A stretch of 64,000 bases of DNA from Alternaria dauci. Lineage: Eukaryota; Ascomycota; Dothideomycetes; Pleosporales; Pleosporaceae. The notes under the pieces were generated by a model. That model was not told where the DNA came from and ran no database searches. It saw only the letters and a list, made by a program, of their open reading frames with translations. The position numbers and the translations under genes are program-made. Shown piece by piece: positions 28,093 to 52,554 of the stretch. How positions within the stretch are numbered: the first letter of the stretch is position 1; every line of letters starts with the position of its first letter. The stretch lies in NCBI RefSeq assembly GCF_042100115.1, contig NC_091273.1, positions 2,852,001 through 2,916,000 of the forward strand, given 5' to 3'.

Positions 28093-31000
28093 ATGGCGTC
28101 TGAATCATCGGATTCTCTCCCTATTCCCCAACCTCCCCCACACTTGTTCATTGGTAACCTCGCTGAGATTGACCCCGACAACGCGCCAGCATCTTTGCAG
28201 CGGCTTGCGGACATCTATGGCGAGATCTACCAGCTCGACCTTCCAAGACACGATGGCAAACTCATCGTTGTCTCTTCCTATGATACGATCAACGACTGCT
28301 TTGATAGCGAAAGGTTTCAAAAGCCCATTAATGCGACCCTGGAGGAGGTACGCGCTTTGACTGGAGACGGTCTGTTCACAGCATACCCCGGTGAAAAGGT
28401 AAGTAACAAACACTCCTTCTTGTCGTATATACTAAAAGAGGACCCAGGCCTGGGGTATTGCTCATCGGCTGCTCATGCCGGTGTTTGGACCCATGGGAAT
28501 CAGGAAAATGTTTGACGGCATGATGGATATTTCAACACAAATGCTGCTTCGATGGGATCGTTTCGGCCCGGAGCGCGAGATAGAATGCAGTGATGACTTC
28601 ACGAGGTAACCATGACCCCATTCTCGCACGACTTGCCTTTTGGTACTAACAGCTTCGAGGTTGACATTTGACATGATCGGTCTATGTGCATTCGGCTACA
28701 GATTCAACAATTTCTATACCGACCGTGCACATCCCTTCGTAGAGGAGATGGTCGAAGTTTTGACCGAGTCCGGAAGAAGAGCCAACCGCACATCTGTTGA
28801 AAATAAGCTTCGTGTCTTTGCTGAAACCCAGCGGCAGGAGAACGTGAAGAAGATGCACCAACTGTGCGACCAGATCATTGCAGATCGAATTGCTCATCCG
28901 CAGCCAGATGCCAAGGATCTACTGAACCCTATGCTCGAAGGTGTGGATAAGGAGACAGGCGAAAAGATGACAAAAGAATCTGTAAGGTACAACATGGTGA
29001 CCTTTTTGGTCGCCGGCCACGAGACCACAAGTGGAACCTTGGGTTTCTTGTTCTATCATCTACTCAGGAACCCAGAAAAGTATCTGAGAGCCCAGCAAGA
29101 AGTCGACGAAGTACTTGGAGACGGACCGCTTGAACTCAAGCATCTCCCGAAGCTCACCTACATAAAGTTCGCAATCTACGAGGCATTGCGTTTCCTCGGC
29201 CCCATTGCAATCAACGGAAAGCAAGCGTTGAAGCCTACCAAGATTGCAGTACGTCCAATTTCCCGCTGATATAGTCTCTATGCTAATGGAAATAAGGGGA
29301 AATATCAGGTGCAGCCAGAGGATCAGATCCTGATGAACCTAAGAGGACTCCATCACGACCCCAAGGTCTATGGCGACGATGCTGACGTATTTCGACCCGA
29401 GCGTTTTCTGGACGGCGGTTGGGAGAAACTTCCTCCAAATGCATGGAAGGCTTTCGGCGATGGAATGCGCGCTTGCATCGGCAGGACATTTGCTGAGCAA
29501 GAGATGATCATGGTTGTCGCACTCATTTTGCAGAAGTTCCAGGTTGAGCTTGCAGATCCCGGTTACCAGCTCCGTATGTGTATCATTTCCCTGATGTACA
29601 GGAACATTGCTGATCCAGTTATCCAGATGTATCAGTAACCATTACGCAGAAACCGAAGGACCTGAAGATCAAAGTGCGCAGACGACCTGGACGTACAATG
29701 GCTAGTCTGGGTGGCGTTGGGACCAGTACCACTGCTGCTAAGAAGGACGGTGGTGATGAGTCAAGCAAGACTGGAGAATCAAATCCACCTGCCACAGACT
29801 TGAAGCCTATTACAGTACTATATGGTTCAAACTCCGGTACATGCAAGTCCTATGCCGAAGACCTGGAGACCAACGCCACACGATACGGATTCAAGGCGAA
29901 CATAGCCAGTTTAGACTCGGCCACCGAGCATGTTCCTAAAGATCAGCCTGTCGTCATCATTGAACCCTCATACGAGGGTAAGCCAGCCGACAATGCAAAG
30001 AAGTTCACTGCATGGCTTGAGAGCAACACGGACCCCAAGCTGCTTGAGGGGGTTCAGTATGCCGTCTTTGGGGTGGGAAATAGCGACTGGACTCATTCGT
30101 ATCACCGGATTCCTAAACTCACTGATGAGTTGTTTGCGAAGATGGGTGCGAAACAGTTCACTGAGACCGGTCTCGTCAACGTGAAAGAAGATGTCATGGG
30201 ACCTTGGGAGAAGTGGTCCGAACAGATGTGGAGTGATCTTCGCAAGTCCAGTGGTACTACTACTGAAGTACTCAGAGGACAGCTCCAGGCCGCCATCACA
30301 CCTCCGAAGTTCGCCACGTACCTTGGAGGTAAGGATATCGGCTACGGTGAAGTCAAGGTCAACAAAGATCTGGGTGGCGGCGAGGTTGGCCTTAGCAAGA
30401 AACACATGGAGATTGAACTTCCAGCAGGGACATCGTATCGTTCAGGCGACTACATGGTCATCCTGCCGCTCAACAGCATCTCCAATGTCAGACGGGTCAT
30501 GAAGCGCTTCGACCTGTCACCTGATGACAACATCCACATCACCGGCACCAACAAGACATTCATCACAACCGAAGCACCAATCTCGATCTTCGACCTGCTA
30601 ATGACACGTGTGGAACTGGGTACGCCGATCTCGCAAAAGCAACTACAAACTCTTGCAGAAGCGACACCGGAGAACGAAAGGGCCAGGCTACTGGACTTGG
30701 CAAGCGACAAGACGTACAAGGAGCAAGTCATACCCAAGCGCTACAGTATCCTTGATATTCTTGAAGACCATCCAGCCTGTCAGCTCCCTTTCGCGGTTTA
30801 CCTTGACTCACTCAAACCTCTGTCTCCTCGTCAATACAGCATTTCGTCATCGCCGCTCGCCAATGTTGAGTTTATCCAGACAGCTGATGGAAAGACTGGC
30901 CAGCGTCTGACTGCATCCTTGACTTACGATGTCCACGACGAGGCCGCATGGAGTGGGGATAATCGCCGCTTCCACGGTGTCGCGTCCACATACCTAGCGG

Positions 31001-31548
31001 GTCAAGAGCCGGGCGAGAAGATCCGTTGCTTCCCGCGTCAGACAAACATCAACTTTCACCTACCTTCCGACCCGACCGTACCAATCATCATGGTATGCGC
31101 GGGCTCAGGTCTCGCTCCTATGCGCGGCTTCATCCAGGAACGCGCAACCATTAAGAAGGCTCGGAACGCGACAGTCGGTCCAGCGATCTTATATTTTGGT
31201 TGCCGTCATTACGAGAAGGACTTCATCTACTCTGACGAGTTGAAGCAGTGGGAGGCCGATGGTGTCGTCAGTGTGCGCGGCTGTTTCTCGAAAGTTGCTC
31301 CTGAGGGCGAGAAGGCGCAACGGGTGCCGGATCGGATGTGGGACGAGCGGAAGGAGTTGGCCGAGCTATTTGGGAATGGAGGCGCGAAGGTCTTTATCTG
31401 TGGTAGTGCGAGCAAGTTGGCAAAGAGCACAGCGGAAGTGTGCATGAAGATTTTCCGGGATACTTTCCCGGGCAAGACGGAACAAGATGCTTTAGAATGG
31501 CTGGAGAAGGTCAGGGAGGATAGGTACGTGAGCGATGTGTTCGAGTAG
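28093..31548 (+). CDS. self-sufficient cytochrome P450 : NADPH-P450 reductase fusion (CYP505 / P450foxy type)
   Basis: Subterminal fatty-acid hydroxylase family, catalytically complete in one chain. Exons 28093-28398, 28448-28605, 28660-29248, 29297-29573 and 29636-31548; introns 49, 54, 48 and 62 nt; 1080 aa. P450 half: I-helix FLVAGHETTSGTLG, ExxR as EALRFLGP, heme loop AFGDGMRACIGRTFAEQE with C411 as ligand. Reductase half: FMN-binding TVLYGSNSGTCKSYAEDLET, FAD-binding LSPRQYSISSSP, NADPH-binding MVCAGSGLAPMRGFIQER and CGSASKLAKS. No membrane anchor, as expected for CYP505. The last intron (29574-29635) sits just before the linker; its acceptor was chosen because it restores LTITQKPKDLKIKV in frame. 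The substrate is inferred from family only. Confidence 0.93.
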
Positions 31549-32881: not shown

Positions 32882-34073
32882 ATGGTTCAATTCACTGGTC
32901 TCACGGCGGTGCTGGCACTTGCCTCCACTGTTTATGCCCAATGCGGTTCCGGCAGTCCTGCCGCCCGAGTTACTGGGTCCGGTAGCTCTTTCACAGCAAC
33001 GAGGGGCACGACAAACCTCTACACTGGCTCCGACTACCGTCTAGGTAAGTTTCAGCTGTACAGATTCCATGTAACATATGCACTGACTTTGTATCTTCAC
33101 CTTTGCAGCCATCCAACGCGCTCTCGATGGAATCACCAGCGGACAGCGTGTTTCCGTCATGGCATCCGGCAACATTGGCGCCGGAACCATCACCATCACA
33201 AGCGGAAAGACGTTTGAAGGCTGTGGGACTATAACCGCTGCTCCCAAGAGCGGAGGAGGAAACATTGAAGTGACTGACCAGACTGGTGTCAGCATTCCTT
33301 ACCTCACCATGGCCGGGTCCACCTACTTTGGCATGCGCTTCTCTGGCACCAAAGACCTGACCCTAGGCACTATCAACTTCAACCTCCAGCAAGGAATGGG
33401 TATTCGGTTCGACCGCGACCGAGCGGCCAACACAAATGTCAAGATGGGCACCATCACCTGCACCGGCGGCTCGTCGCACTGCGTCGAGACATGGAACATT
33501 GACAGGCTCGAGATTGGTTCCGTCATCGGCAGGAATGTCGGAGAGTGTGGTCTGCTTATCCAGAAGGTCACAAACGCAAACATCGGCACGGTAGACTGCG
33601 ACAACTGCGCTACAGGCACCGGATATGGCGCCCTCCGTTTTGCCAACGAGGCTGGAAAGCTCAACGGCGGATACGCAACTAACATCAAGGTCAACCGTGT
33701 CAAGGCTCGTGGTGGTGGTCGCGGAGTCTTCTGTGTCTCTGCCTCTGGTGGTGTGGAGATTGGTACCATTGACGTCGCCAACACTGGCAACAACGCCGTC
33801 TTGCTCGAGAACTGCTACAATTTCAACATCAAAGCCGGTACTGTCAACGGCGGTGGTGAAGTTCGTCTTGCCGCTAGGACCGAGTTTGAGAACAGCAGGG
33901 ACATTGCGATTGCGCTCAGGGTTGATGGAACTACTGTGAGGGAAAGCCGTGAGTATCCCCATACCAACTGCATGTGAAACACGTACTGACTTGGCATCCC
34001 AAATATAGCTTGCACAGCTAATAAGACCAAGTGGAACCTTACGGGCAATGGTGCAAGGACCATCTGCACCTAA
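32882..34073 (+). CDS. secreted right-handed beta-helix (pectin-lyase-fold) protein
   Basis: Exons 32882-33044, 33109-33948 and 34009-34073; introns of 64 and 60 nt; 355 aa. Clear signal peptide MVQFTGLTAVLALASTVYA with cleavage before QCGSG. The mature protein is a repeating turn-and-strand pattern (e.g. GNIGAGTITITSGKTFEGCG, YLTMAGSTYFGMRFSGTKDL, NTGNNAVLLENCYNFNIKAG) typical of parallel beta-helix proteins, with many Cys (CTGGSSHC, GECGLL, CDNCATG). The acidic catalytic sets of GH28 or the pectate lyase basic sites are not evident, so I do not assign an enzyme activity. Both introns share an internal sequence with introns of the permease gene 3-4 kb downstream. Confidence 0.82.
33045..33108 (+). 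repeat. intron with introner-like sequence (copy A)
   Basis: 64-nt intron. Its last 28 nt match the last 28 nt of the 64-nt permease intron at 36935-36998 at 24 positions (ACTGACTTTGTATCTTCACC.. versus CCTGACTTTCTACCTTCACC..), and both share CATGT(G)A.ACATA upstream. Confidence 0.6.
33949..34008 (+). repeat. intron with introner-like sequence (copy B)
   Basis: 60-nt intron carrying TGCATGTGAAACACGTACTG; TGCATGTGAAACA is identical to the segment in the permease intron at 37849-37909. Confidence 0.5.
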
Positions 34074-34608: not shown

Positions 34609-35420
34609 ATGGCAGCCTGTTATTGGCGCAACGGAACAGAACAAACGCATCCTGCCTATGAGCCGCAGATCAACGATACCTCGAACCCACTCAGTACCAT
34701 CTGTTGCGCTTCATGGGATAACCTGCTGCCCAATGGGTTGTGCCAGAACAAAGAAGAAACGGTCATCTGGCGAGAATCGTGTACGCTGAGTGATTGGGAA
34801 GGAGGAGGATGCCAGGATCTTTGCTCAGCCGAGGTAGACAAGGCGCGGCGGCTGTAGAGACCAACAAAGCTGACTTTGACCAGAGCCCTTTGCAGAGAGA
34901 GACCGACATACAGGTTACACCCTGTACTGGTGCCGCTAATTCGACAACATGGTGTTGCGGACTTTTGAATTTGTGCTGCGCGGATGGGAGCCCTATCCCG
35001 CGACACACGATCGCGGCGCGTTTCGGGGACCCGATACCTACCGCGACTTCATCGTCTTCTCTGTCGACGCATTCAGCAGCGAGCACAGCGGTAGCGAGCA
35101 GCAACAGTGAACTCTCTGGAGGTGCGAAAGCTGGCATTGGTGTCGGGGCAACATTCGGAGCTATCGCTTTGTTGGGGCTGGGTGTTTTTGTCGCTCAGGC
35201 ATTGCGATGGCGCAAGAGAGCGCGAAACGCGACCTTGTCGTCTCACGTACCTGAAGAGTACCCGCCAAAGGACGTTTATCGATACGAGCAAGAGGGCAAC
35301 CCTGCGCAGCTAGCCGGCACGGAAAGTGAACTGCACGAAATGCCGGGATCTGTAAGGGTGTCCGAGTTGGGTCACATTGCATGCAGTCGTCCTGTAGGCG
35401 AAATTGCTACCCAAGCTTGA
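34609..35420 (+). CDS. Cys-rich single-pass membrane protein, unknown function
   Basis: Exons 34609-34833 and 34884-35420, 253 aa. The intron (34834-34883, 50 nt, GTAGAC..GCTGAC..CAG) joins DLCSAE to SPLQRETDIQV. A Cys-rich outer domain (ACYWRNGTEQTHP, TICCASWDN, NGLCQ, GGGCQDLCS, PCTG, WCCGLLNLCCAD) is followed by a Ser/Thr-rich stem and one TM segment (GVGATFGAIALLGLGVFVAQ) with a basic RWRKRAR stop-transfer sequence and a cytoplasmic tail. This layout is common in fungal cell-surface proteins. No clear signal peptide lies at this ATG; the upstream ATG at 34423 or a missed exon may supply it. Start uncertain. Confidence 0.65.
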
Positions 35421-36284: not shown

Positions 36285-38005
36285 GCACCGACAAGGAGAC
36301 TGCGCAAGAAGTTATCGAGGACCATACGGCCAATGGCGCCGGAGGCCCTGAAGGAGGGGCACTACACGTACGCTTGTAGCCCAAGTATGCGACTTCTCTA
36401 ATGCTCTACAGCGATACATCAATACCCCCTCTTCGGTCAACTTTAATTTTCTCATGCAATGCTCATGGGAAGCATCTGCGGTTACTTTCCAGTTTGCGTT
36501 GAGCAATGGGGGTCCCGCGTCTATCGTCTACGGCAGCATCTTCGCGTGGGCGGGAACAACCTTGGTGGCCCTGTCGCTTGCCGAAATGTCATCCATGGAC
36601 CCCACGGTTGGTGCTCAGTATCGGTGGTCTGCTACTTTTGCACCAAAGTGGAACCGCTTCTTCGGGCTGATGCAAGGGTGGATCACGGTCTTCGCCTGGA
36701 TCTGTAGCTGCGCTTCCAACCCAGCATTGATAGCGAACATCGTCGTCGGCTTGGCTTCGTTTAACAACCAGGGGTACGTTTCTGAGAGATGGCACACTAC
36801 GCTCATCATGTGCGCTGCGACGGCAATTCCTTTCATTGGCAATCTTTGGCTGCCCAGATTTATCAACGTACTCGAAACTGTCGGAGCGATATGCCACGTT
36901 GGATTCTTTCTTGCGGGTATCATTACGCTAGCAGGTATGTTATGACTACGCGAAATGCATGTGAGACATACCCTGACTTTCTACCTTCACCTCTGCAGCC
37001 ATGGCACAGAAAAGTTCCACTGAATACGTCTTCCGGACATTGACCACGGACGTCAGTGGGTGGGACAACCCAGCAGTGGCTTGGGGTATAGGACTTATCA
37101 CTGTTACGTATCCTTTGTGTGGTAAGCGATGCCGAAATAATGTCCAACTCGAACATGCTGATGATCCCTAGGATTCGACAGTATCATTCACATGTCTGAC
37201 GAAGTCAAGCAAGCACGTACCCGGGTTCCACGGTCCATCATTTTCTCTGTCGTGGTCAACGGCCTCATGCAACTCATCTACATGATCACCGTCTTGTTCA
37301 CCATTGGTGACGCAGAGCGTGTCTCTGCTTCGCCTCTACCGATCATCGAGGTCTACTACCAAGCCACGGGATCCAAAGCAGCCACGAACTTGTTCATCTT
37401 TATGCTAATCTATATCATCTTTGTATCTTTCTTCAACGTCTTCGCCTCAGTATCGCGCCTCATCTGGGCGTTCTCAAGAGACGGAGGGTTACCTTTCTCG
37501 TCTACGTTCGCAAAAGTTCATCCGACGTTTGGAGTGCCGGTCAACGCGCTATATCTGAGTGCTCTTTGTGTCTGCATACTCGCCCTCATCAACGTTGGTT
37601 CAAGCACGGCATTCAACGCCATAATCTCACTTACGGCATTGGGTTTATACCTTTCTTACTTCCTTCCTGTCTTGTTCCTCTTGTGGCGTCGGACGTCGAG
37701 GACGAAGCCATCGCCAATTCCATGGGGACCGTTCAGGCTGGGCAAAGCAGGAGCATTCGTCAACACTGGTGCTTTGTGCTACACTCTGTTTACCTTCATT
37801 TGGATGCCGCTTCCGACGATCCTCCCTCTGGACAGGTTTAATATGAACGTAAGTGTCCTTGTACGGAGTGCATGTGAAACATACGTTGAGCTCATACGTC
37901 CATATCTAGTACGCCGGGCCAATTCTTGGTGCCATTATCCTAGGTGCTGCGCTAGACTGGTCTTGGAACGGGAAAAGGAGATTCAGTGTGCCAATAGCAA
38001 GTTAG
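36281..38005 (+). CDS. APC-family amino acid/choline-type permease
   Basis: Plasma-membrane transporter of the amino acid-polyamine-choline superfamily, closest in pattern to fungal GABA/choline permeases. Exons 36281-36367, 36412-36934, 36999-37121, 37172-37848 and 37910-38005; introns 44, 64, 50 and 61 nt; 501 aa. Visible blocks: QFALSNGGPASIVYG, LVALSLAEMSSMDPTVGAQY, GWITVFAWICSCASNPALIA, GFDSIIHMSDEVKQARTRVP, LIWAFSRDGGLPFSS and PILGAIILGAALDWSW. About 11-12 hydrophobic segments. Exon 1 encodes a short hydrophilic N-terminus and is the least certain part. Introns 2 and 4 carry introner-like sequence. Substrate not deducible. Confidence 0.87.
36935..36998 (+). repeat. intron with introner-like sequence (copy C)
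   Basis: 64-nt permease intron with TGCATGTGAGACATACCCTG followed by a 3' half nearly the same as intron 33045-33108 in another gene. Confidence 0.6.
37849..37909 (+). repeat. intron with introner-like sequence (copy D)
   Basis: 61-nt permease intron with TGCATGTGAAACATACGTTG; it matches copy C at 15 of 16 positions over the core and copy B over 13 identical bases. Confidence 0.5.
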
Positions 38006-38966
38006 GGTTTTGGGTGAATGTACCGATAGAGCTGGAATGGATATGACAGCGCGCTAGTCGATACATACGTAGTCGGCGTTGCGGGACTGCTAGGGCCATC
38101 GCCCACTCGCCTGGCTATGTAGATCTGCTAAACCTTATGACGTTGGAGATTCTAAGGTCCCTAACAATGCGCGGTCGGTATGACGTAGTCTATTGTGTCA
38201 ATCCAGTGCTCTTGGGCTGCTTTGATATCGCAAAAACACCTAGGACATTCAGTTACAATGTGATTGATGGATGCAGGGACCGAAGGGCCGAGTCGAGAGT
38301 AGGCTAGCCTGTATTTGGTGTTTGACGTTCACCGCTCCCCGTGACCGTGGTCAAGGTCAGGATATCAGTGACGAGGTAACGCGACACGGTCAGCAAGTGC
38401 AGCGATTGGGTGAGGCGGTGGTCCCTGACGTCTTTGTGGGCGTGTGAGGAGATCACCATGAGTCGACCACCGTCTGAAGACCACGTAGCATTCTCCATAG
38501 AAACCGTGAAGGATATTCTCCGCGAGACCCTGATCTGCCTGTATCCCGCGCGACTGTGCGGGGAACGACCGGTCCTTTTTCCAGCGCGTGTAGGCCGGCC
38601 AGTCGCCCATGGGCGGTCGGCTATGGCTTGCAGAAGCGGAGCCAGGCAGAGGTGCTACCCATGCACGATGATCGCAGCCTACATACACAGCCCACTCGAC
38701 CTGTGCCACGCCGTCGCGAAGCTTCGAAAAGCGTCGGCGGCCCCGCTAATATCCAATTCTGCGCTATGGGCTGAGGCAATAGGGCAGATGACGACATGGG
38801 GTCTTGTGAGACTGAGCTGAGCGCTGCAGCCCTGCCGAGAGCCGCGCTTTAAGTGTCAGATGCTCGCCGCCTGCCATTAGACGGCACTTCCTTGTCCGCA
38901 TCCAAACCCTACCACTACCACCATCTTTTACCATATTCACCACACAAACACACCCCGCCCGCGAGT
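38006..38966. other. intergenic
   Basis: 961 bp between two plus-strand genes. Short ORFs on both strands show no family resemblance. Nothing supported. Confidence 0.5.
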
Positions 38967-40073
38967 ATGGGACGTCGTGATAGACACAGAGAGCCGTCCA
39001 TCTCGCCGCCGCCTCCTCCGCCCATGGGCAATCCACCGCCTCGTAAGATGCCACGGCGCACTCGCTTGGTACACGGCTAACAAGAGACAGCAGATTCCAC
39101 ATACCACTTTGACAACTACGAGAACGGCAAGCCAAAATGGGCGCCTGGAAAGGACAACCGCAAAGACTACCGCGATTATCGCAACAGCCGCAGAGGCGAT
39201 CATCGCCGTCCCCGAAAAGAGCGGCCTGAAGACGATGCCCCGCCGCCATACCCAATGAATCCGCCTCCTCCACCCGGCGCTGCTCACCATCCACCGCCCC
39301 CGCCCCCACCAGGAGCTTCAGAATACCCTCCTCCTCCTCCGCCTGGCGCAGCAGGCTACCCTCCGCCTCCGCCTGGCGCATCAGATTATCCGCCTCCCCC
39401 TCCACCAGGTATGCTGGCGTGTCAAGACAGTTTCGTAACACCAGCTAACTGAAAGCAAGATCCTCGCGACCACCGAGACCGCGGCGCTCGACATCGTCAC
39501 CACCGCAGACAGCCCTCGTACTCGTCCAGCGACTCGGAATCAGACTCCCCGCCCCCTCCACGACGCAGCCACCGCGACGACCGCCCCCGTCGATCCAGGC
39601 GCGAGGATACCTACGACTCATACGACGAGCACTATCCGCCCCGCAGGCCCAAGGACGACGGCCGCCGTGACCGCGATGGCTACAAGTCTGAAGGCTACAA
39701 GTCGGACCGCCGCCGCAGAGACCGAGACTCCTACCACGACGATCGCGACCGCCGAGACAGGCCACGTGACGATCGCAGACACCGCGACGACCGCTACGAC
39801 GACCGTTACGACGACATGTTCAACGCCAAGCCGCGTCGCGACTCTCGCTACGATGACAGGGATCGCGACAGGCGTGGTCGGTACGACGATGATGATCGCT
39901 ACGATGACCGCCGTAGGAGTGGTAGAGATGCGCACAAGCCAGGAAAGCCCGGACAGCCTGAGTGGCAGAGGCAGGCTATGGGCATGTTCAAGGACTATGC
40001 GCTGCCCATCATCAAGAAAGAGGGTGCCAAGTATGTACAGAAACAGATGGCTAATGGCTTCGGAAGGCGTTAG
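38967..40073 (+). CDS. Pro-rich / Arg-Asp-rich low-complexity protein
   Basis: Exons 38967-39042, 39091-39408 and 39460-40073; introns of 48 and 51 nt; 335 aa. N-terminal third: STYHFDNYENGKPKWAPGKD, then repeated polyproline blocks (PPPPPPPGASEYPPPPPPGA and variants), profilin/SH3/WW-type ligands. Middle: RD/RS-like mixed-charge repeats (DDRDRRDRPRDDRRHRDDRY), typical of RNA-binding or condensate-forming proteins. C-terminus: a conserved-looking amphipathic segment, EWQRQAMGMFKDYALPIIKK. The overlapping +1 frame is also long (39667-40092) because of codon composition, not because it is a gene. Function unknown. Confidence 0.75.
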
Positions 40074-40485: not shown

Positions 40486-40778
40486 TTAGGAACAGTAGGC
40501 AATGAGGCAGTTGACTTGGCAGGCAAAGGCCGGAGCGAGCGGGCTGCAGTTTGAACGGCAGGTGTCATATGAGTCCTGGTGGGCACAAGCGTCCGCTCGA
40601 GCGTCTAATGTGACGACCAGTTGTTAGCCAGGGCTTTCCTTATCCTACAATCACGGACATGGAGACGTTGATAACGGAAACGTTACATACCAAGAACGGC
40701 AGCCGTCTGCTCTAGCGAGACTGCGGGGAGGGCCGTGGCTGTGACGGCGAGGGCAGCGATGATGGCAGCGAAACGCAT
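40486..40778 (-). CDS. small secreted six-cysteine protein (effector-like candidate)
   Basis: Two exons, 40778-40691 and 40604-40486, intron 40690-40605 (86 nt, GTATGT..GGCTAAC..CATTAG), 68 aa. Exon 1 encodes a textbook signal peptide, MRFAAIIAALAVTATA, cleavable near ALP. Exon 2 encodes the mature core with six Cys spaced C-8-C-3-C-8-C-3-C-4-C (CAHQDSYDTCRSNC ... CQVNCLIAYCS) and the stop. The paired CX3C motifs suggest a disulfide-stapled helical hairpin. Both exons are too short to stand out as ORFs. A TATA box lies 122-127 bp upstream. Size, secretion and Cys content match fungal apoplastic effectors or small antimicrobial proteins, but function is inference only. Confidence 0.72.
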
Positions 40779-41728
40779 GGTAATTGCTAGAAGATGACTG
40801 GTGGCTTCTTGAGAGAAGGGTGTTGGCTCGGGTAGTGGAGTGTGAAGAGAGGATGCGAGTTGTGCTGATGAGGAGGAATTCAAGACGACATAGGACGACT
40901 TTATACACTTTTCGAGACCTCTACGAAACGCATTCCTCAAAGGGCTCTGAACATCCATTACCGAATGGAGAACAGGAACCGGGAAGAACGGCTACGCGAC
41001 GGATCGCGACCTGCATGGAACTAAACCTCATTTCTCTACACGTCCGAAACCTGGGGGTGGGTAAGGCGTTCCGTTCGCCCCGTGGGGTCTGGATATAACA
41101 CCACACGAGGACGATCAGGTACGATTGAGGAAAACTGAATGGCTTCGTGCTCCACTATAGATGAAGTGTGTTCGTATGCTGAGGGTGGCCTTGCATTGAA
41201 TCATCCTTCGAGGACCGCAATCCCCAGACTTCTCCACGGAAGAATGTAACCTTGGGCAAGTCTATACTAAGATTGTCATTTGATGGCATTGTCATTACTA
41301 ACATCCGTCTGAAGGATCGAGTGGCTGCCTGGGCCTCCCTAGCTCTCACCAACTGACGTAGTCGATGTCGTATCGGCTGCAACGAAGCGGGTGTATCAAG
41401 CTTTGCTTGCCAAATAAGCCTCGTGCCGAGAAGCTTAGCTATGCCCTGCAACCCGAGGCATTCGACTTGGAGGATTCAGCGTAACGGTTTGATGACACCG
41501 AGGCAGGGCTTTCCATCACATGGAGGATGATGGATGCTCAGAATGGTATAGCGTTCCTTCTGTTTCAAAATTTAAATAAGGGCTCTAGTGGTTAGATCGA
41601 AGGTAAAAATCTGCACCTGAATACGAGCGTACCAATTAAGGTATAGGTGCGATTACACCACGTACTAATGCTAACAGAGACTGTACCAGATTCCCATTCC
41701 CCTGGAGCAACATGCTCATCCCGCCTAC
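40779..41728. other. intergenic
   Basis: 950 bp between minus-strand genes: promoter of the small secreted protein and 3' flank of the methyltransferase gene. AT-rich patch near 41565-41640. No other gene seen. Confidence 0.5.
40900..40905 (-). promoter_or_regulatory. TATA box of the small secreted protein gene
   Basis: TATAAA on the minus strand, about 122 bp upstream of the ATG at 40778. Confidence 0.5.
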
Positions 41729-42679
41729 TCAGACAAAACTAGCCACCCAAACATCCATTGCCCGAACTCCCTTCCGCCCTCCTGACAGACCCTTCAAACT
41801 CGCTTCACACGCATCTCTCAACGCAAGAACCACGCCTCGTTCCCGTTCATCACTCACATTATCCTCTACCTCCTTTTCAAAAGCAGGAGAAAGACAAGCC
41901 GAAACTTCCCACTGTCCGTCCAACAGCCCCTCTCCACTCTGCACATACGTCTCACTCTCCAATTGCCACCCAGCAGCCAGAGCCAGCTCAGTGAGCCGCT
42001 TTGACCCAAGCACTGTGCGGATATTTGAGATACTCTTTGATTTCCGGCACTCGAGCGCTGCCTGTGTGAGCGCAGCTAGTACGTGAGGCTGAGAAGACAA
42101 GTCTGTCGCTACTAGAGACCACTCGGCAAGGAGGAGACGTTTGCTGTGCTGCTTGATGGCGCGGAGCGTGGAGAGAACGAGCGAGGTGGAGGAGAAGTAC
42201 CATAGGCTGTGGGCTAGTACTGTTGCATCGAAGGCTTTGCTGCTGCTGCTGCTGGCTGGCAGTGATGAGAGATAGTCTAGAGGGGATTGCTGGATCCAGG
42301 TAATCTGGCTGCCTAACGGGCCTTGCGAGATGTGTTTCTGTGCTTGACTGAGAGTATATGGGGAGCCTACAGGAGCATGAGTTTGCTGGTCTCTACCCGA
42401 CCGTTGAGACACTATGTTACGGATGGAAAAAAACATACCATAGTCCAATTCCGCTGGGTCAACGGCGACTATCTTTCCCCGCCCGCCCACAGCGGACGCA
42501 AGGACAGTCGTACAGTCTCCTTGTCCACATCCTAATTCCAGCACTTTTGATCCAGCAGCAATACTCCAGTGCTGCAGAATCGCTAAGCGATGAAGAGTTT
42601 GGGAATACTGGATACTAAAGTTTATAGGATCATGTAGGGAAAGACGAGCGATATTTTCTGCATCGAGTTCGGCAGACAT
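41729..42679 (-). CDS. class I SAM-dependent methyltransferase
   Basis: Exons 42679-42439 and 42366-41729, 292 aa. The intron (42438-42367) is 72 nt, a multiple of three with no stop, but GTATGT and CCTGTAG mark it, and its removal joins AELDYG to SPYTLSQAQ as in related fungal proteins. SAM-binding motif I is VLELGCGQGDCTTVLA, followed by GKIVAVDPAELDYG (acidic ribose-binding position). Later blocks: FDATVLAHSLWYFSS and RLLLAEWSL. Probably a small-molecule methyltransferase; substrate unknown. Confidence 0.85.
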   Translation of the reverse strand: MSAELDAENIARLSLHDPINFSIQYSQTLHRLAILQHWSIAAGSKVLELGCGQGDCTTVLASAVGGRGKIVAVDPAELDYGMFFSIRNIVSQRSGRDQQTHAPVGSPYTLSQAQKHISQGPLGSQITWIQQSPLDYLSSLPASSSSSKAFDATVLAHSLWYFSSTSLVLSTLRAIKQHSKRLLLAEWSLVATDLSSQPHVLAALTQAALECRKSKSISNIRTVLGSKRLTELALAAGWQLESETYVQSGEGLLDGQWEVSACLSPAFEKEVEDNVSDERERGVVLALRDACEASLKGLSGGRKGVRAMDVWVASFV

Positions 42680-43046
42680 GGTTTTTGAAATGCTGTGGTT
42701 GGATACAATACAAACGATGAGAGTCTTTGTAGCTAAATAATAGTACGTGAGGAAGAGGAGCAAGCTATTCGTGAGTCAGTCCGTTATCTTTCGAGTCATC
42801 CTCCTACATCCCTTCTTCAGCCTAGTGTGGCCTCCTGAACGGGGTTAGTGTTCACGGCGTAGCGTCCTCTTACCCATGCCATCTCAACAATAACGGCGAT
42901 TGCGCCTAAATATGCGCTCAAAACTGTGGAGCATTGGCATGTCGTCTTTACTGGCGGCCCCGAATCATGTACGACACCGAATTAAGCAGATGACTTCAGA
43001 ATCACACTCGAATTGCTGTGACTATATAAGTTCTAGCAAACAACAC
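42680..43046. other. intergenic
   Basis: 367 bp: methyltransferase promoter and 3' flank of the GH28 gene. Nothing else. Confidence 0.5.
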
Positions 43047-44497
43047 CTACGATTCTCCTCCCTTGGTTCCGTTGGTGGTGCAGTTGACCTGGCTGTCAAT
43101 GCCGTTAATGTTGGCGCAAGTGTACTGGTTGGTGCCGCTTGGGCTGGTAACATTGATGTTCTCAATGTTAATGTTGGAGCACACTGTTGGGCTAGAGCAG
43201 ACCAAGTATCCAACAAGCGGATCGTACTTCTTGCTGGTGGTGCCGCGGAAGTTCTTGACAGTGATGTCGGAGATGGTAAGGTTGGATGGAAACTATCATG
43301 TTGCGTTAGGATTATAGTACAATCAAGTCGCCGTGCTGTGGCTTACCTGGTTGCAAAGAGTCAGGTTCTTTTGACCGTAGCATTGAGTAATCTCAATAGC
43401 GTAGTCGACGTTGGAGATGGTCATGCCGTCGTACGTAATGTTCTTGACGGCACCACCACCGCCACCGCCCTGTAGATCGCCAGAGAGCGCAGAGGAAGCA
43501 CCAGGCCAGACCTTGATACGCGCACCGTCTGAAGCGTTGGACATGCTGATGTTGTACACATAGATGTTCTCAACATAGTCGACCTCGCCAGGGTACTGTC
43601 CCAAAGAGCCCACACTGATGCCGTGACTACCGTTGCAGATGAGGTTCTGAACAACAATGTTCGTGCTGTTTGGCTTGAACGAGACACAGTCGTCGCCATT
43701 GTCAATGTGTGAGTTTTGGATGACAATGTTGTCGGAGCGGTACGTGTCCCAACCGTCAGTGTTCTTGGCGGGGTTCTTGCTGACACTGCCGCCGAAGATG
43801 TCGATGTTGTCAAAGACAACGTCGCTCGAGTTGGCAACAAACGTGTACCACTGCGGGCTGTATCTGAACTTCAGATCCGAGATGGTAGCACCTTCAGCAC
43901 CAATAAGACCGAAGAGAATGGGCCGTAGGATGTAGATATCCTTGGCGTAGAGATCATACCACGCCTGACCATTACCATCGAGAGTACCACCTCCGTAGAC
44001 GTTGATGTCCTTGCCACCAATCTGGAAGAAGGTGGTGGCATTCTGAAACACTTGCTTGAAAGAGTTTGCTTGCCAATAATCCGTGTCGTTGGTGAACTGA
44101 ATAGACCCTTGGATGTCTGTGTGGTGGTAAGCGCTGAACGACCATCAAGTCCAGGGTCCTACATACCAAGATCGATGCCGTTAAGGAAAGTCAAATCCAA
44201 CGCGGTTCCGATAGTGAACTTCTGATCCTTGGGGAAAACAACGTGCCCGCCGTGGTTGCACTTCTTGATAGCTGCCAGGATGTTGGCAGAATCATCTTTA
44301 CCGTTGCCGAGAGCCTTGACGCTGCAGGTCTTGGTTCGTGGTGGCGAGGCTGGACACGCCTTTTTTGGGTGATATGGATACGCGGGATGGTGTGGCCTCT
44401 TGGAGGCAGCAACGCTCACGCTTCGCGCATCGAGAGGTGTCGATACTGCTGCTGATGCTTGCAGCAAAGCGTATGTAAGAAGTTCGCTGACGCGCAT
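43047..44497 (-). CDS. GH28 exopolygalacturonase, secreted
   Basis: Pectin-degrading enzyme releasing galacturonate from homogalacturonan ends. Exons 44497-44167, 44116-43347 and 43292-43047; introns of 50 and 54 nt; 448 aa. Signal peptide [21 protein letters not shown]28 motifs in order: [38 protein letters not shown] and [10 protein letters not shown]. The SHG form and overall length favour the exo-acting subgroup. Many N-glycosylation sequons (NAT, NSS, NIS, NLT, NVT). A plausible cell-wall enzyme for plant colonisation. Confidence 0.93.
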
Positions 44498-45946: not shown

Positions 45947-47558
45947 TCAACCGGCATACGCACGGTAACCATGTTGATCATCGAATACACACGGCGGGCC
46001 CATTGCAACATCTTCCTGCCAACCCTGGTCCACGGGTGTCCGCGGCTCGTCGGTGCTGGGACTAGGACTATTCGTAAACAGGCTCTCAGTTGGGCTCTGA
46101 TCAAGCACATAACCCGAGTCCGACCTTGGCGGCGCAAAGAGATCAAGATGAGCATGACCAAGTACAGGAACGCTACCAAAGTCGTCGTTCCTGGAGGCGT
46201 AGCCAAAGTCCACTTCGCTGCCGTAGTATGGGGAAGGCGGGTAGGACAGTGACGAGTCTGGACCGTGGTAGGAAGGATCGAAAGCTGCGGGCACGGAGCG
46301 TGAGATGTATTGGTCGTTGCGATATGTGTCCTGCATGCGGCTTGAGCGCTTCATCCTTGCTGAACGACGAGCGGCTTGGCCACCCTTCGCTCCAGAGGCC
46401 TGGCGCTGGGGCTGTGGTTGCTGAGTACGGTGACCGCGTTTGTTGGGCTGCTTACTGCGGTAGCGTGTCGTCGACTTGACGCCTTCGCGGATCGCCTCGT
46501 CGGTAAGACGCCACATGAAACCTTTGCGGGATTCTTCACCTGGCTGGTCAACTTTCTCAAAGGCCTAGTATCTTGTTAGATCGTATTGAGTTGTAGGTGA
46601 GAGATGGACATACCCCATTCATCGAAAGATTGTGCCTGATGCTGTTCTGCCATCCTTTTGTTTCCGAGGCACTAGCTTTGTCGGTGTTGTTCTTGAACCA
46701 TTCGTAGATATCGCGCAGTATCATCGTCTTATTCGGCGCATTCAGGAGCGCCTGGTAGATCAGCTGGGCATATGGCTGCTCTTTGTCGATAACGCCACCT
46801 TCACCTCCAACATAGTCGTGCTGATGTAGAGAAGAATCATTGTGGGGAGTCGAAACTCGAGTCAGGTCAGAGTACGGGCTCTGGTAGCCATGAGGATCGT
46901 TGACCTTTATGTGAGAGCCGTACTGGTGATGGTCGTAGTCGGTGCTCAGCTGCATGAGCTGACCGCTGATTTCGTGATCTGACAAATCCATGGCATCGTG
47001 GTGCTTTGGCGGCTCAATATGGTATGCAGTGGGTGGGTATGAGTCTGTCATATCCATGTCGCAAGGAAGGCCGGTAAGGTCGATGTCGTTGGGAAGGCCA
47101 GTGAGTTCGATGCCGGTGTACGATCGTGGGCGGCTTGAGCTAGGATATTGTGGTGGGTATGAAATGTTGAAGTTGTCGTTATATGACATGCCATTCTCGG
47201 CGTAGTGGTAAAGGTCTCCAGTGCCATGTGGGAACGGGTTATGCGCATGGTAACCAGCCGCATTCTGGGTCATGGAGCCAAGTAGAAAATTGGTTGGGGC
47301 AGTCCACGGCATTGACTCTTGTTCGTCGAGGCTCATGCTGAAGTTGGCGATTGTGTGTTCGTTGGGAGATTCAAGTTCCTGGACGGTAGGCGTGGTGGAC
47401 GGGACCTCAATAGGTAGTCTGGGAGTGAGCGACAACAGCGGATTTGGAACGTGAAATGGAAGCGGGGTACGAAAGGCGTCTTTGGATAATTGGACAGTCT
47501 CATATTCACCACAGGTGTCCGCGGAAGAGGGTCGATGAGGTGATTGTGCATGCGGCAT
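45947..47558 (-). CDS. forkhead (winged-helix) transcription factor
   Basis: Exons 47558-46614 and 46564-45947, intron 46613-46565 (49 nt), 520 aa. The forkhead domain spans the intron at about residues 258-345: QPYAQLIYQALLNAPNKTMI, LRDIYEWFKNNTDKAS, then the recognition helix GWQNSIRHNLSMNG and, after the intron, AFEKVDQPGEESRKGFMWRL. Flanks are disordered and Ser/Pro/His-rich. A short repeat (IELTGLPNDIDLTGLPCDMD) precedes the domain, and a basic tract (RSARMKRSSRMQ) follows. Nuclear regulator, possibly cell-cycle or developmental, as for other fungal FKH proteins; orthology not resolved. Confidence 0.9.
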
Positions 47559-48871
47559 GGCTGCTGTGCTGGTGGCCCCTTACGGGTATGGATAACAGAG
47601 ACGATGAGCGTATCGATATGGGATACGCGAAAGCGAGTGCCAACGTGCTGTGTGAAACCAAAAGACTGGCAGAAAATGAGAGTAGTGAAAGGCTATGCTC
47701 ACAAATGAAGCGGCCGTTGAGACATTAAAATGCTCCGCTATGCCCCGGCGAATGGGATTGCTTGGAAACCAGGTCATTGTCACCTAGATACTTCTTTGCC
47801 GGGTTCCTGCTGCCAGCACACCTGCAGGCTTGATACTGCGCCAGGGCTTGGGTGGGCAAACAAAGCATGAGATCTCATCGCAAAGACTGAGAATCCGACA
47901 AGATCCCTAGGCGCAGCTGCAGGGCTGCTGTCACGGGTCCAGAAGTGCCGACATTGCATCATTGCCTCGCGAGCCGAGACGTAGCCTACAGACCCTTATT
48001 GCACTACTCCATCAGGCATTCGGAATGATTTTCTGTACGACCATTGCAGCCAACGATTGCCTGCTTGACACAGGGCGGGCGGCAAGTTGCATACTGCTGG
48101 GCCATTTGCAACATCGAAACGTCCATCGGCCTGCGCGGTAATGTCCCGATGTTCGATGCTCAGATCCGGCTTCTGTCCATGCAACGGAAATGGTCCGAAT
48201 GTAGGTCTTGTCCTCGTTGAAGTCAGGAAGTAGTTGTCCATTGTGAGATTTCATTATCTATGCTCAGGCTCCTCTCGCGAAGTACAACAATCGTCCCACT
48301 AGAGGAAAGTCTCTTCATGGACAGACAATGAGTTTTTCACGTGCAAACTCTTTCCGAAAAAAGGACATTAGGGGCTAGTGTTCTGCATGCGCAGGGGTGT
48401 GACATGATGTGCTGCGCATGCAAAGAGGCAACAGGCGAGCAGCCGCTTGGGAGCAGACCCCACAGAAGCATGTAGCACAGCTTTTACGACCCTGGTTCCG
48501 GTGAAGTTCATTCATAGTCCTTGCTCGAGTTCACATAAAGCAACGATCGTCTGTGGTTGGCTGATGGCGTGGGGCCTGTCACCGCTCGAAGAGGAGTGTA
48601 CACCGCCAACGATTCCGGGGATGGAGATGCTCCATCGTGGGGATGGAGGAGGGTTGGTTGAGTCGTCACCGCCAATGTAGTGATGGCGGGTGATGGCCCA
48701 TCGAGGAAAACCTGGCATTGATGGAGTAGCTCGCCTGATGGTGTGCCTATCGATGTGCAGGGACTCGTGTAACGTCCGCCCTACTCTTGGTCCTATCATG
48801 ACTGCTGAATCCAGGAGGGCCGGATGTAGCGGGGTAGACTGTGGATCAGCCGTGTGATTGACAGGACCCAG
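47559..48871. other. intergenic
   Basis: 1.3 kb: forkhead promoter side and 3' flank of the cactin gene. No supported ORF or repeat. Confidence 0.5.
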
Positions 48872-50618
48872 CTACTTTCGATAGTATATCTGCCACGCGT
48901 TAGTCGTGGTACGGTTTCGGTCATGCGATCTTGACATACCTTCTTGAATTGGAAGTGGAGTTGCAGGATGCCCTGCATTGCGTTAGCCACGTAGCTAGTG
49001 ATGGAAAAGAGGGTTGGGACATACCTTGTCAAAGCTGCTCTTGAAGCCGCGTTCACGTTTAGCGCTGTAGTCCCACTCCTTGTCGATGATCCTGAAAGCG
49101 ATGTCTTCATACGGCGGGCCGGCGATGAAGCGGATGAGGCACGTGTCGTCTTCACCGGCGGGAGCAAAGGACTGGCCCTTCTTGCGGCCATTCTCCCGCT
49201 CGATCTTGTAGGTGGGCGCCTTTGACTTGTCGATGAGGTCAGGGTAGAAGATGTTGAACTTGTAGCCCTGCACAACCTTGGGTGGGGGGTTGTCGTGATC
49301 GTAGTGCGTCTGGTTGTACTTGTTCCATTCATAGCCCATCTGGACGCGGTTGAAGTAGCGGGGCTTCCTGGGCTTGTAGCTACCGGCCCACTGGGGCCGG
49401 GCGGTTGTGACTTCCTCTTCGGCGGTAAATATCTCCTCGCCTTCCTCGACACCGCGCGCGACTTCCCTCTCGTACAGCGCCATGGTTGCTTTGGAGTAGT
49501 CCTCCTTCTCGACAGGCGCAAATCGTGAGGCGCTCGTGGTCACAGTCTGGCTCGTGGTGGGCTGACTGCTGCTGACGGTGGCATCGCTTGATTTGGCCTG
49601 GGAGGGCACGTAGCCAATCTTTTGGATCTTCCTCCTCTCAGCTGCCAGGTGCTCCAGGAAAGCCTGCTCGTCGGTCTGTGGCAGCGCTTTGTCTTCGGCG
49701 CGTAGCTTGAGCAGCGGCTGTGGATCGAAGGCTGCATCGTACGCGACAGTCGTCGGCTGCACGTCGCCCGCCTCGTCGGAGCCCTTGAGCATAGTGTAGA
49801 CGCTGTTTTGCACGGACGCAGCAGCCTCAGCCTGCTGCTTGCGCAACGTCTGCAGTCGCTCCCTGACAATCTCCTGCGAGACACGGCGCAGCCTCGCCTT
49901 TGCCTTCCACACGCGCAAGCTCCGCAGCAGTTGCTCCCAGTAGTCGTAGTCGATTGGCTCGTCCGAGTCGAGCTTCTTCTTGACCTGCACCTCGAGTGTC
50001 TCGAGCTGTTCGAACGTCTTGGGGGCGAGGAGCTGGTCGATGTCAGCGGCCACGGAGCTGGTGCCGCGTGCTTCGGAGTTGGACGACTTGGATTTGCGGC
50101 GCATGTCTTTGCAGATTGCCTTGAGGGACTACGGGGGGGTTAGCTGTGCAGAGCACCGGTATAGATGTAACACTCACATTCCAGTAGTCGCGGTTGCTCC
50201 TGCTGGTCTCAAGGGTGAGGTAGTTCTCAATCTCCTTTTCCAGCTCCACGACATCTTCGTTACTGAGGCCTTCCAAGACGCCCTCGGGGTCCACAATGTC
50301 CAGCTCGTGGTCCTCCACCTCCTCGTCGAGAATCGACTTCTCGGCAGGGTCGATGAAGCGCAGCGTGACGGCCAGCCAGTCAATGGGTCTCGCGCGCCCG
50401 CCCTTGACGCGCAGTGCCGCCTTCTTCTTCGCCTGCTGCAGCACGAAGCGGTCCTCATCTGCCACCCACGCCTCCTCGGCCGCGTTGGTCGACCGCTTCG
50501 CAGGGTTGTCGTGTGCGCGTGAGTCGGCTGACCGCTTTGCTGGGACAGACGAAGACGGCGCGTCGCGCTGGGGCAGGCGGCTGCGCTCGTTGCGCCATGG
50601 AGGCTCACGTGACGACAT
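48872..50618 (-). CDS. Cactin, spliceosome-associated protein
   Basis: Nuclear protein linked to pre-mRNA splicing and, in yeasts, telomere function. Exons 50618-50178, 50128-49025, 48972-48940 and 48889-48872; introns 49, 52 and 50 nt; 531 aa. Mid domain: DEDRFVLQQAKKKAALRVKG, then GRARPIDWLAVTLRF. C-terminal cactin domain: RPQWAGSYKPRKPRYFNRVQ, GYEWNKYNQTHYDHDNPPPK, YKFNIFYPDLIDKSKAPTYK, IRFIAGPPYEDIAFRIIDKE, ending GILQLHFQFKKIYYRK. The conserved end is built from a 33-nt micro-exon and an 18-nt terminal exon. It shares a 266-bp divergent promoter with the XLF/Nej1 gene. Confidence 0.92.
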
Positions 50619-50884
50619 GTTGTTGAGACGTACGAGATGTGACTTTGCTGGTGATGTCTGGATGCATCAATGCCCAGGCCGGCGCAGATCGCGAAATCTT
50701 TGGCCGAGGCTGGTGACGTACGGCGCGCCTGCAGGCATCTCCTCCTTGGCGCGGCTGCCTTTCACTTGCGCCTCGCCCTGAGCTTCACGTGTCACATCAG
50801 GCCCCCACAGCAGGCTGCGTGGAGTCGCGCGTCTTCCTCTCTTCGCAAACATGCGTGCCAATCTATCCCTCTCTCCAGGTTGAA
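50619..50884. promoter_or_regulatory. shared divergent promoter of cactin and XLF/Nej1
   Basis: 266 bp between opposing start codons. GC-rich, no TATA box. Contains repeated GGCGCG/GGCGCC-like runs (50720-50760). Confidence 0.45.
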
Positions 50885-52554
50885 ATGTCTTGTTGGCGCG
50901 TGCTAGAGCTCTCCGAGCAGCCTGACGGCAAGCACATCCCCCAGCTACTCATCAAACCCGACTTCAATCTGGACTCGTACACAGTGCACCTTACCGACCT
51001 CAGCAACATATGGTGTGAAGAGCTAGACGTCTATGGTATAGTCAAGCGGGCGGCACAGGAGCAATCACCTATCGAAGTTAGCAAACATGATACTGCGCAG
51101 CTTGCCATCCTCGTCGAAAATGTCAAGAAATCCTTGTCGAGTGCAGAGCATGCCATATGCCGTGTGACTCGCAACGACACGGACGGCATCACTCTACACA
51201 CTAGCATCTGCCTTCCAGAGCCGCTCGACCGCTTGACATGGAAATTCAATCTGGAAAGGCGAGCATCTGCAACTCTAAAGAATGAACTGATCCTTCCGCT
51301 ACTTGTATCGTCTCATATCCAGAATGAACGAATCGCCGCACTCATATCTGCTGTTACCGACAAAGACAGGGCAATATCTCGACTCATAGATCAGTTTGAT
51401 TCCAATAACGTGGACCTGGCTGCAGCCTTCCCCAGCATCGGCGGGACCAAGACAGGGAGGAGAGTGGTCAAACGTGAACAAGCGGCGAAGCACGTTCCCG
51501 CCTTACGGCCGTTCCACGAAGAAGCATGGAGGCAGGAGACAGAACAACTGGGAGACGCAAACCCGACTACGCTCGACTTGTTCCAAGAAGCATTGGCGCA
51601 GAGTACCGCGAGAGTACCACGGCAACTGATGTCCAAAGATCGAGAGTCTACGTGGTGGACTCAAGTCCCTACCCAGTTGGGACCGCTGACCGCCCCGGCT
51701 AAAACTACAGCCAACAAGCCAGCTCCGGCTGAAAAGCCAGTAGGGGTTACTGGGGACTCGGATGAGGGAGAGACGGAGGATGAGTTTGAAACCCATGAAA
51801 ACTTCAACGTAAGCACATGATGGCACACTACATTCTGAAGCTGCTAACAGTCTCATAGACACGCAATATCATCGGACGGCCCGTAAAAACCCCAGCAGCA
51901 CCCGTACCATCATCGCCACACACGAGAACCAGCGAGACGGGAGACGATAGTACTGAGGACGAAGAGGATCTAGATGCACTTGCCAAGGGCCAAGTCAAAA
52001 GCAAGGGTCAGACGATACACCAGACGAGTCGCACCAGGACGCCCACACCTGAACATCACTCTTCACCCAAGGCGGCTTCACCTCCAGCCCAAAACGCCAA
52101 GGTCAGCAGTTTCCGAATAGGTGGTAAGTCGAGAGGAAGGGCGATTTCTCCTCCACCATTGCCAGGGAATACAGATGCAGAACCGGAGGCGGACATCCTA
52201 CCGACCAGGGAGTCTGTGCCTCCTTCGCAACCGACCCAATCGGTCATGACCCCAAAGAAAGCCCGAAAGCCTTTCAGAATCGGAGGCAAAGGAAAAGCTG
52301 TCGATGGAGATGCTTCACAACGCGCCATAACAACCTCACCAAGCACCAACCGCCTCAGAAACACGCAATCGCCTACTATAGAACCGCCGTCCTCCCCGCC
52401 GCCATCTAGGGTGGCGAAAGCAATGTGCCCCGTCAAGGAGGTACACGAGGAAACTCCAGAGAAGAAAGCAGAGCGAAAGCGGGCCGAACTAAAGCGGAAG
52501 AACGAAGAAGCCGCGAAGAAACAGGCCCAGGCGAAAAAGAAGAAGAGATTTTGA
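50885..52554 (+). CDS. NEJ1: XLF/Nej1-type non-homologous end-joining factor
   Basis: DNA double-strand-break repair factor that works with Ku and ligase IV/XRCC4. Exons 50885-51808 and 51859-52554, intron 50 nt, 539 aa. An in-frame GTG at 50789 is not a start. The N-terminal head domain (WRVLELSEQPDGKHIPQLLI, YTVHLTDLSNIWCEELD, LTWKFNLERRASATLKNEL) is followed by a coiled-coil stalk (HIQNERIAALISAVTDKDRA). The long tail is disordered, with a duplicated FRIGGK motif (about residues 393 and 447) and the C-terminal basic-aromatic KKKKRF, matching the X-type Ku-binding motif of XLF proteins. Confidence 0.88.

What the first reader, a model, noticed from the sequence alone, without database searches (positions are those of the whole stretch)
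40486..40778. Hidden small secreted six-cysteine protein split by an intron
Seen directly: a 29-codon signal-peptide exon and a 39-codon exon with six Cys (spacing 8-3-8-3-4) join in frame across a good 86-nt intron with a GCTAAC branch site, preceded by a TATA box. Neither exon is long enough to be noticed alone. Paired CX3C motifs in a short helical core are a compact disulfide-hairpin design. Inference: a candidate apoplastic effector or antimicrobial-type protein next to cell-wall enzymes.
Basis: partly seen in the sequence, partly recalled or inferred. Interest (0 to 1): 0.75.

Follow-up and report, generated by a model that had tools for sequence, protein, structure and literature searches.

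The report
Conserved fungal six-cysteine secreted peptide gene
A tiny fungal gene, easily missed because an intron cuts it in two, encodes a small probably secreted protein whose six cysteines keep the same spacing in relatives from distant fungi; it looks real and largely unstudied, but its job is not known.

Summary
On the minus strand, exon 40778-40691, an 86-nt GT-AG intron (40690-40605) and exon 40604-40486 encode a 68-residue protein with a signal-peptide-like start and spacing C-x8-C-x3-C-x8-C-x3-C-x4-C. It is not a chance reading: three protein searches returned 22 proteins, 11 of which hold the cysteine domain, from Alternaria, Corynespora, Melanomma, Clohesyomyces, Plectosphaerella, Colletotrichum and Pestalotiopsis. 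With the window, 12 of 12 domain rows (10 distinct cores) keep the exact spacing and end one residue after Cys6. The other 11 rows carry exon 1 only and break off at the same codon. No second intact copy was found in the 34.9-Mb genome. No Pfam family or solved fold matches significantly. Two moderate AlphaFold models are all-helical. A disulfide-braced helical hairpin is likely; its disulfides were not seen. The conserved core, its lack of strong positive charge and probable saprobe carriers speak against a host-specific effector or a cationic antimicrobial. Best reading: a conserved extracellular hairpin peptide of filamentous ascomycetes, role unproven. New unnamed family of a known kind.

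The parts
40900..40905 (-). TATAAA, probable TATA box, 127 nt before the ATG
   Evidence: Upstream frames of P0007, P0009 and P0010 (3 of the 5 rows that carry upstream sequence) have codons compatible with TATAAA at 129, 132 and 105 nt before the ATG; P0008 and P0020 do not show it. Indirect: only proteins were seen.
40691..40778 (-). exon 1: start codon, signal-peptide-like residues 1-16, start of the region before the cysteines; ends one base into codon 30
   Evidence: 11 exon-1-only rows plus P0015 break at the same codon
40605..40690 (-). intron, 86 nt, phase 1, GTATGT...TTAG
   Evidence: joined protein matches gene models of other fungi without a gap in 9 of 11 foreign domain rows
40623..40628 (-). 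GCTAAC, branch-site-like, A 19 nt before the acceptor
   Evidence: consensus recalled
40486..40604 (-). exon 2: six-Cys domain, C-x8-C-x3-C-x8-C-x3-C-x4-C, one residue after Cys6, stop TAA

Best explanation
A real single-copy gene for a small secreted protein. Shown: the two-exon anatomy and the conserved six-Cys domain. Inferred: it is transcribed from the TATA promoter, spliced, enters the secretory pathway, is cleaved after Ala16 and is oxidised to a compact peptide of about 52 residues. Two helices (about 39-47 and 55-66) pack as an antiparallel hairpin braced by C45-C62 and C49-C58, with C36-C67 closing the ends; this pairing is my inference by analogy with alpha-hairpinins. A further helix (about 20-34) precedes it. 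It works outside the cell as a stable peptide, most likely in a general role at the hyphal surface or in the surroundings that pathogens and non-pathogens share, rather than as a host-specific effector. The invariant last helix (CLI..C) is the probable working or packing face.
For: Anatomy. Homologs with E as low as 3e-29 by single sequence and 6e-38 by profile. Spacing kept in 12 of 12 rows; 13 of 33 core positions invariant in 10 rows. Common exon-1 break. Helices at 19-34, 39-47, 55-66 and 20-34, 39-47, 55-67 in two models, block pLDDT 74-87 over residues 31-68. No second intact copy found. Core net charge -4 to +2. Carriers include Melanomma and Clohesyomyces, which I recall as saprobes.
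Against: No transcript, proteome or phenotype. The relatives are gene predictions and do not all agree: P0003 has four extra residues at the junction, P0015 keeps 28, P0006 lacks exon 2. Models are moderate (mean pLDDT 71 and 68, pTM 0.51 and 0.50), coordinates and disulfides were not seen, and no solved fold matched. Secretion rests on inspection and a simple rule, not on a trained predictor. A conserved role does not exclude use during infection; several carriers are plant pathogens. Within Alternaria the domain is less conserved (A. rosae 64-70% to the other Alternaria rows and the window) than between Alternaria and Plectosphaerella (82-88%), which a simple 'slow housekeeping' picture does not predict.
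Confidence: 0.6

Rival explanations
1. An apoplastic effector: secreted during plant infection to act on plant proteins or immunity, stabilised by its disulfides.
For: Small, signal-peptide-like start, six Cys; carriers include genera that I recall as plant pathogens (Alternaria, Colletotrichum, Plectosphaerella, Corynespora); A. rosae exon 2 has diverged more than its exon 1.
Against: Core nearly unchanged across distant fungi, present in presumed saprobes, no sign of family expansion in this genome. No expression data.
Confidence: 0.22
2. An antimicrobial peptide of the alpha-hairpinin type against competing microbes.
For: Contains CX3C-x8-CX3C, inside the published 4C motif CX3CX4-20CX3C with one extra Cys on each side (PMC11591084 passages); helical models.
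Against: Core net charge at most 0 in 9 of 10 rows, +2 in Colletotrichum; mature net charge -5 to 0 in 10 of 10. That such peptides are usually cationic is recalled. Not all known hairpinins kill microbes; some inhibit trypsin.
Confidence: 0.13
3. A chance pairing of two frames, or a decayed gene, not a protein-coding gene.
For: No transcript seen; 23 looser Cys-rich frames in the window.
Against: Exact protein-level conservation over both exons in other genera.
Confidence: 0.02

Closest known systems
Unnamed hypothetical proteins IG631_03594 (Alternaria alternata), GT037_002325 (A. burnsii), BKA58DRAFT_373361 (A. rosae), F5X68DRAFT_237102 and B0T11DRAFT_331319 (Plectosphaerella), QIS74_01358 and CH35J_007710 (Colletotrichum), K505DRAFT_356667 (Melanomma), BCR34DRAFT_607851 (Clohesyomyces), BS50DRAFT_636338 (Corynespora), LQW54_011593 (Pestalotiopsis)
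   Same: True homologs; same cysteine spacing, same C-terminal end, similar signal-peptide-like start.
   Different: Identity over the core to the window 48-88%; two models differ at the exon junction (P0003, P0015). None has a function or Pfam domain in the search table.
Plant alpha-hairpinins (definition seen in passages of PMC11591084)
   Same: Helix-loop-helix idea, CX3C-xn-CX3C core, n = 8, extra cysteines allowed.
   Different: Fungal; no detectable sequence kinship; not the published 6C motif (outer spacing here x8 and x4, not x3 and x3); disulfides unknown; little positive charge.
Ole e 6, olive pollen allergen (PDB 1ss3; description seen in passages of PMC8198727)
   Same: Acidic, about 50 residues, six Cys, two antiparallel helices; best profile match in the PDB over positions 38-62.
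   Different: Match not significant (E 0.64; 2.1 with P0012); the printed stretch has Cys spacing 3-3-9-3, here 8-3-8-3-4; no Pfam Ole_e_6 match.
Hydrophobins and hyphosphere proteins (HFS) of fungi (passages of PMC8596622)
   Same: Small secreted cysteine-rich proteins acting at the hyphal surface.
   Different: Eight cysteines in other patterns (C-CC-C-C-CC-C and C-CXXXC-C-C-C-C-C) and larger; here six.

Membership tests
alpha-hairpinin | CX3CX4-20CX3C core, optionally one or two extra Cys | tested here: met
   C45-x3-C49-x8-C58-x3-C62, extra C36 and C67; criterion. The listing I saw of its variants puts extra Cys on one side; one on each side is my reading of 'before or after'.
alpha-hairpinin | 6C motif CX3CX3CX4-20CX3CX3C | tested here: not met
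   outer spacings are x8 and x4
alpha-hairpinin | two antiparallel helices joined by a loop | tested here: inconclusive
   models show helices 39-47 and 55-66, but relative packing was not read and no solved fold matched
alpha-hairpinin | disulfides linking the two CX3C motifs | not testable with these tools
   no coordinates or mass spectra
alpha-hairpinin | kinship with the plant family | tested here: not met
   no plant hairpinin among the hits (capped candidate list) or of the PDB sequence searches; the family is so diverse that this is weak
Ole e 6 (PF09253) | match to the Pfam model | tested here: not met
   absent for the window protein at E up to 10, for 9 members at E up to 1 and for 5 proteins at E up to 10. 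The genome search gave none, but its control rang in 0 of 14 genomes, so that call shows nothing.
Ole e 6 (PF09253) | cysteine spacing | tested here: not met
   printed stretch 3-3-9-3 against 8-3-8-3-4
hydrophobin / HFS | eight cysteines in the family pattern | tested here: not met
   six cysteines; patterns
fungal small secreted cysteine-rich protein (broad class) | short, signal peptide, at least 5% Cys (threshold quoted) | tested here: met
   68 residues, hydrophobic start residues 3-16 with mean Kyte-Doolittle 2.2, 6 of 68 Cys; no trained signal-peptide predictor was run
plant-pathogen effector | acts on the host or is needed for infection | not testable with these tools
   no expression or infection data

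The most novel reading that the evidence does not exclude
The gene founds an undescribed family of acidic-to-neutral, disulfide-braced helical-hairpin peptides that filamentous ascomycetes of two classes inherited and keep as a single copy for their own extracellular biology (surface, signalling or microbe-microbe contact); it is widely missed in annotation, and it is a fungal counterpart, by convergence or mimicry, of plant six-Cys hairpins such as Ole e 6.
Probability: 0.2. Interest if true: 0.65.

Novelty: new member of a known kind. Interest (0 to 1): 0.4.

Why it matters
Small genes split by introns are easy to miss, and here the available models differ at the junction or omit exon 2 in 3 of the 12 database gene models that name a fungus (P0003, P0006, P0015). 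A cysteine pattern kept across distant fungi, without a Pfam family, gives a tractable orphan family: one gene, one deletion, one 5.4-kDa peptide. If it is a conserved non-effector, it also cautions against calling every small cysteine-rich secreted protein an effector.

Tried and rejected
Paralogs: the search of the genome with exon 2 gave two weak extra matches on contig C5 (E 0.0099 and 0.025). Read out, they are two copies of one GC-rich stretch that keeps only the first two of the six cysteines and has no signal-peptide exon that I could see; rejected as paralogs. Exon 2 of A. rosae, Melanomma and Pestalotiopsis each found only the window gene.

Horizontal transfer: Alternaria-Plectosphaerella core identity (82-88%) exceeds that within Alternaria for A. 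rosae (64-70%), but the tree has 0 of 7 inner branches well supported and does not resolve the question. Not claimed.

Ole e 6: with the Cys fixed, shuffles of its printed stretch reached the observed score in 0 of 2000 for the window, and in 0, 0, 0, 2, 0, 0, 0, 1 and 34 of 2000 for the nine others; for the family mean 0 of 1000. But the stretch had been picked as the best of 177,635 sequences, so this overstates; the E-value of 0.64 is the fair number. Other weak matches (cytochrome c555 trimer E 0.039 with no single stretch below E 610, odorant-binding protein, Vanabin2 E 7.4, conotoxin and mating-factor Pfam models at E about 0.03 for P0012) were taken as chance.

Other collections: genome contigs gave 10 pattern stretches and viral contigs 153, none encoding a relative. 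Viral structure library: no match at E 0.001 or below. NCBIfam: nothing for the window protein. Bacterial promoter and terminator scan: nothing, and not suited to a fungus. Papers: no hit for six locus tags or four peptide words. The second structure job used alignment A2, which includes two rows with odd junctions, rather than a mature-only alignment; it is a near-repeat of the first, not an independent test.

Full report
What is there. The gene lies on the minus strand. Exon 1 runs 40778-40691, the intron 40690-40605 (86 nt, GTATGT...TTAG, phase 1), exon 2 40604-40486 with the stop. TATAAA lies 127 nt before the ATG and GCTAAC has its A 19 nt before the acceptor. The joined frame gives 68 residues.

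Is it more than chance? The exact spacing occurs once in the six frames of the window and in 0 of 60 Markov sequences. Looser Cys-rich stretches are commoner in the window than in the Markov sequences (23 against a mean of 7.3), so cysteine richness alone would prove little. Conservation does. The single-sequence search gave 9 proteins with E up to 1, the profile searches with E up to 10 (in one search only the 7,988 candidates sharing most words were scored). Together they are 22 proteins, P0002 to P0023. Eleven hold the cysteine domain; with the window, 12 of 12 keep 8-3-8-3-4 and exactly one residue after Cys6. Two pairs of rows have the same core, so there are 10 distinct cores. In the 10 rows, 13 of 33 core positions never vary: the six Cys and Y, N, S, P, A, L, I.

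The intron. Nine of the 11 foreign domain rows align across the junction without an insert; P0003 has four extra residues there and P0015 twenty-eight. The other 11 rows carry exon 1 and then unrelated residues, as expected if a bacterial-style caller or a wrong model reads into the intron. In these 11 and in P0015 the residue after the junction Leu is Gly, as a G|GT donor requires, followed by T, R, M, G or K, all codable with the purine that fungal donors prefer at position 3 (preference recalled). The script shows this for 11 of 12; for P0022 its rule stopped at an earlier V-G and I read the junction by eye. Several rows are probably from one genus, so they are not 12 independent events, and no nucleotides of relatives were seen.

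Secretion. Residues 3-16 have a mean Kyte-Doolittle value of 2.2, and a small-residue cleavage context (A-T-A before L-P) recurs in the relatives; the predicted mature form has 52-55 residues. No trained predictor was available.

Copy number and spread. In its own genome (34.9 Mb, 10 contigs) exon 1 and exon 2 find only this locus, apart from two weak C5 matches that keep two of six cysteines; exon 2 of three divergent relatives finds only this locus. The search scores best candidates only and does not see introns. The closest relative is from A. alternata, 87% identical, so the genome is probably Alternaria or near it (inference). Plectosphaerella is in Sordariomycetes and Alternaria in Dothideomycetes; the classes of the other genera are recalled. 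Absence elsewhere cannot be read from these searches, because small genes are often not annotated. No relative was confirmed in the prokaryote genome collection or in viral contigs.

What it probably does. The core is 82-88% identical between Plectosphaerella and the window or A. alternata and 73-79% between these and Colletotrichum, and occurs in Melanomma and Clohesyomyces, which I recall as saprobes. That favours a general extracellular role over a host-specific effector. Against this, A. rosae differs more from its own genus (64-70%) than Plectosphaerella does, while its exon 1 is close to the other Alternaria rows; faster evolution of its exon 2, old differential loss or transfer could each explain this, and the tree cannot decide (0 of 7 inner branches well supported). 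The core carries K+R minus D+E of -4 to 0 in 9 of 10 rows and +2 in Colletotrichum; the mature form -5 to 0 in 10 of 10, which speaks against a strongly cationic antimicrobial.

Relation to known things. It meets the 4C motif used for plant alpha-hairpinins and fails their 6C motif (passages of PMC11591084). The best PDB profile match is Ole e 6, an acidic six-Cys peptide with two antiparallel helices (passages of PMC8198727), at a non-significant E of 0.64. Pfam gives nothing for the window protein, and for 9 family members only scattered matches with best E 0.025-0.031. So it may work like these, but it is not filed under them. Literature: eight searches of one open-access library; I saw listings, and passages of four papers. 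None of the six locus tags and none of the four peptide words appears there. That is not proof that the family is undescribed.

Neighbours. Pfam supports a GH28 exon (43323-44144, minus), a methyltransferase-like frame (41729-42775, minus), an amino-acid permease exon (37165-38046, plus), a flavodoxin/FAD/NAD reductase (29614-31548, plus), a forkhead protein (46557-47579, minus), cactin (48995-50128, minus) and XLF (50717-51820, plus). This is an ordinary gene-dense stretch, with no sign of an effector cluster.

Verdict. A secreted helical-hairpin peptide is likely, the general extracellular role is the best guess (0.6), and the function remains to be tested.

Noticed in passing
L005:3829-3906 and L005:5425-5505 (own genome, contig C5): Two inverted copies of a GC-rich stretch, 1.6 kb apart, near a long NTPase-like frame at L005:872-2590, with partial resemblance to the first 26-27 residues of the exon 2 query; probably a repeat, not a paralog.
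   Followed up: partly
window 33087-33977 (+): Long frame that by eye looks like a parallel beta-helix (pectinase-like) protein, but it matches no Pfam family or PDB sequence.
   Followed up: partly
window 34794-35420 (+): Frame with a Cys-rich outer part, a Ser/Thr stretch and one hydrophobic segment followed by basic residues, like a single-pass surface protein; no Pfam match.
   Followed up: no
window 39081-40073 (+): Proline-rich then Arg/Asp/Tyr-rich repetitive protein ending about 410 bp from the small gene's 3' end, convergent with it; no Pfam match for 39453-40073.
   Followed up: no
proteins P0006, P0003, P0015: Database gene models of this same gene differ: A. tenuissima lacks exon 2, A. 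burnsii has four extra residues and C. higginsianum twenty-eight at the junction.
   Followed up: yes
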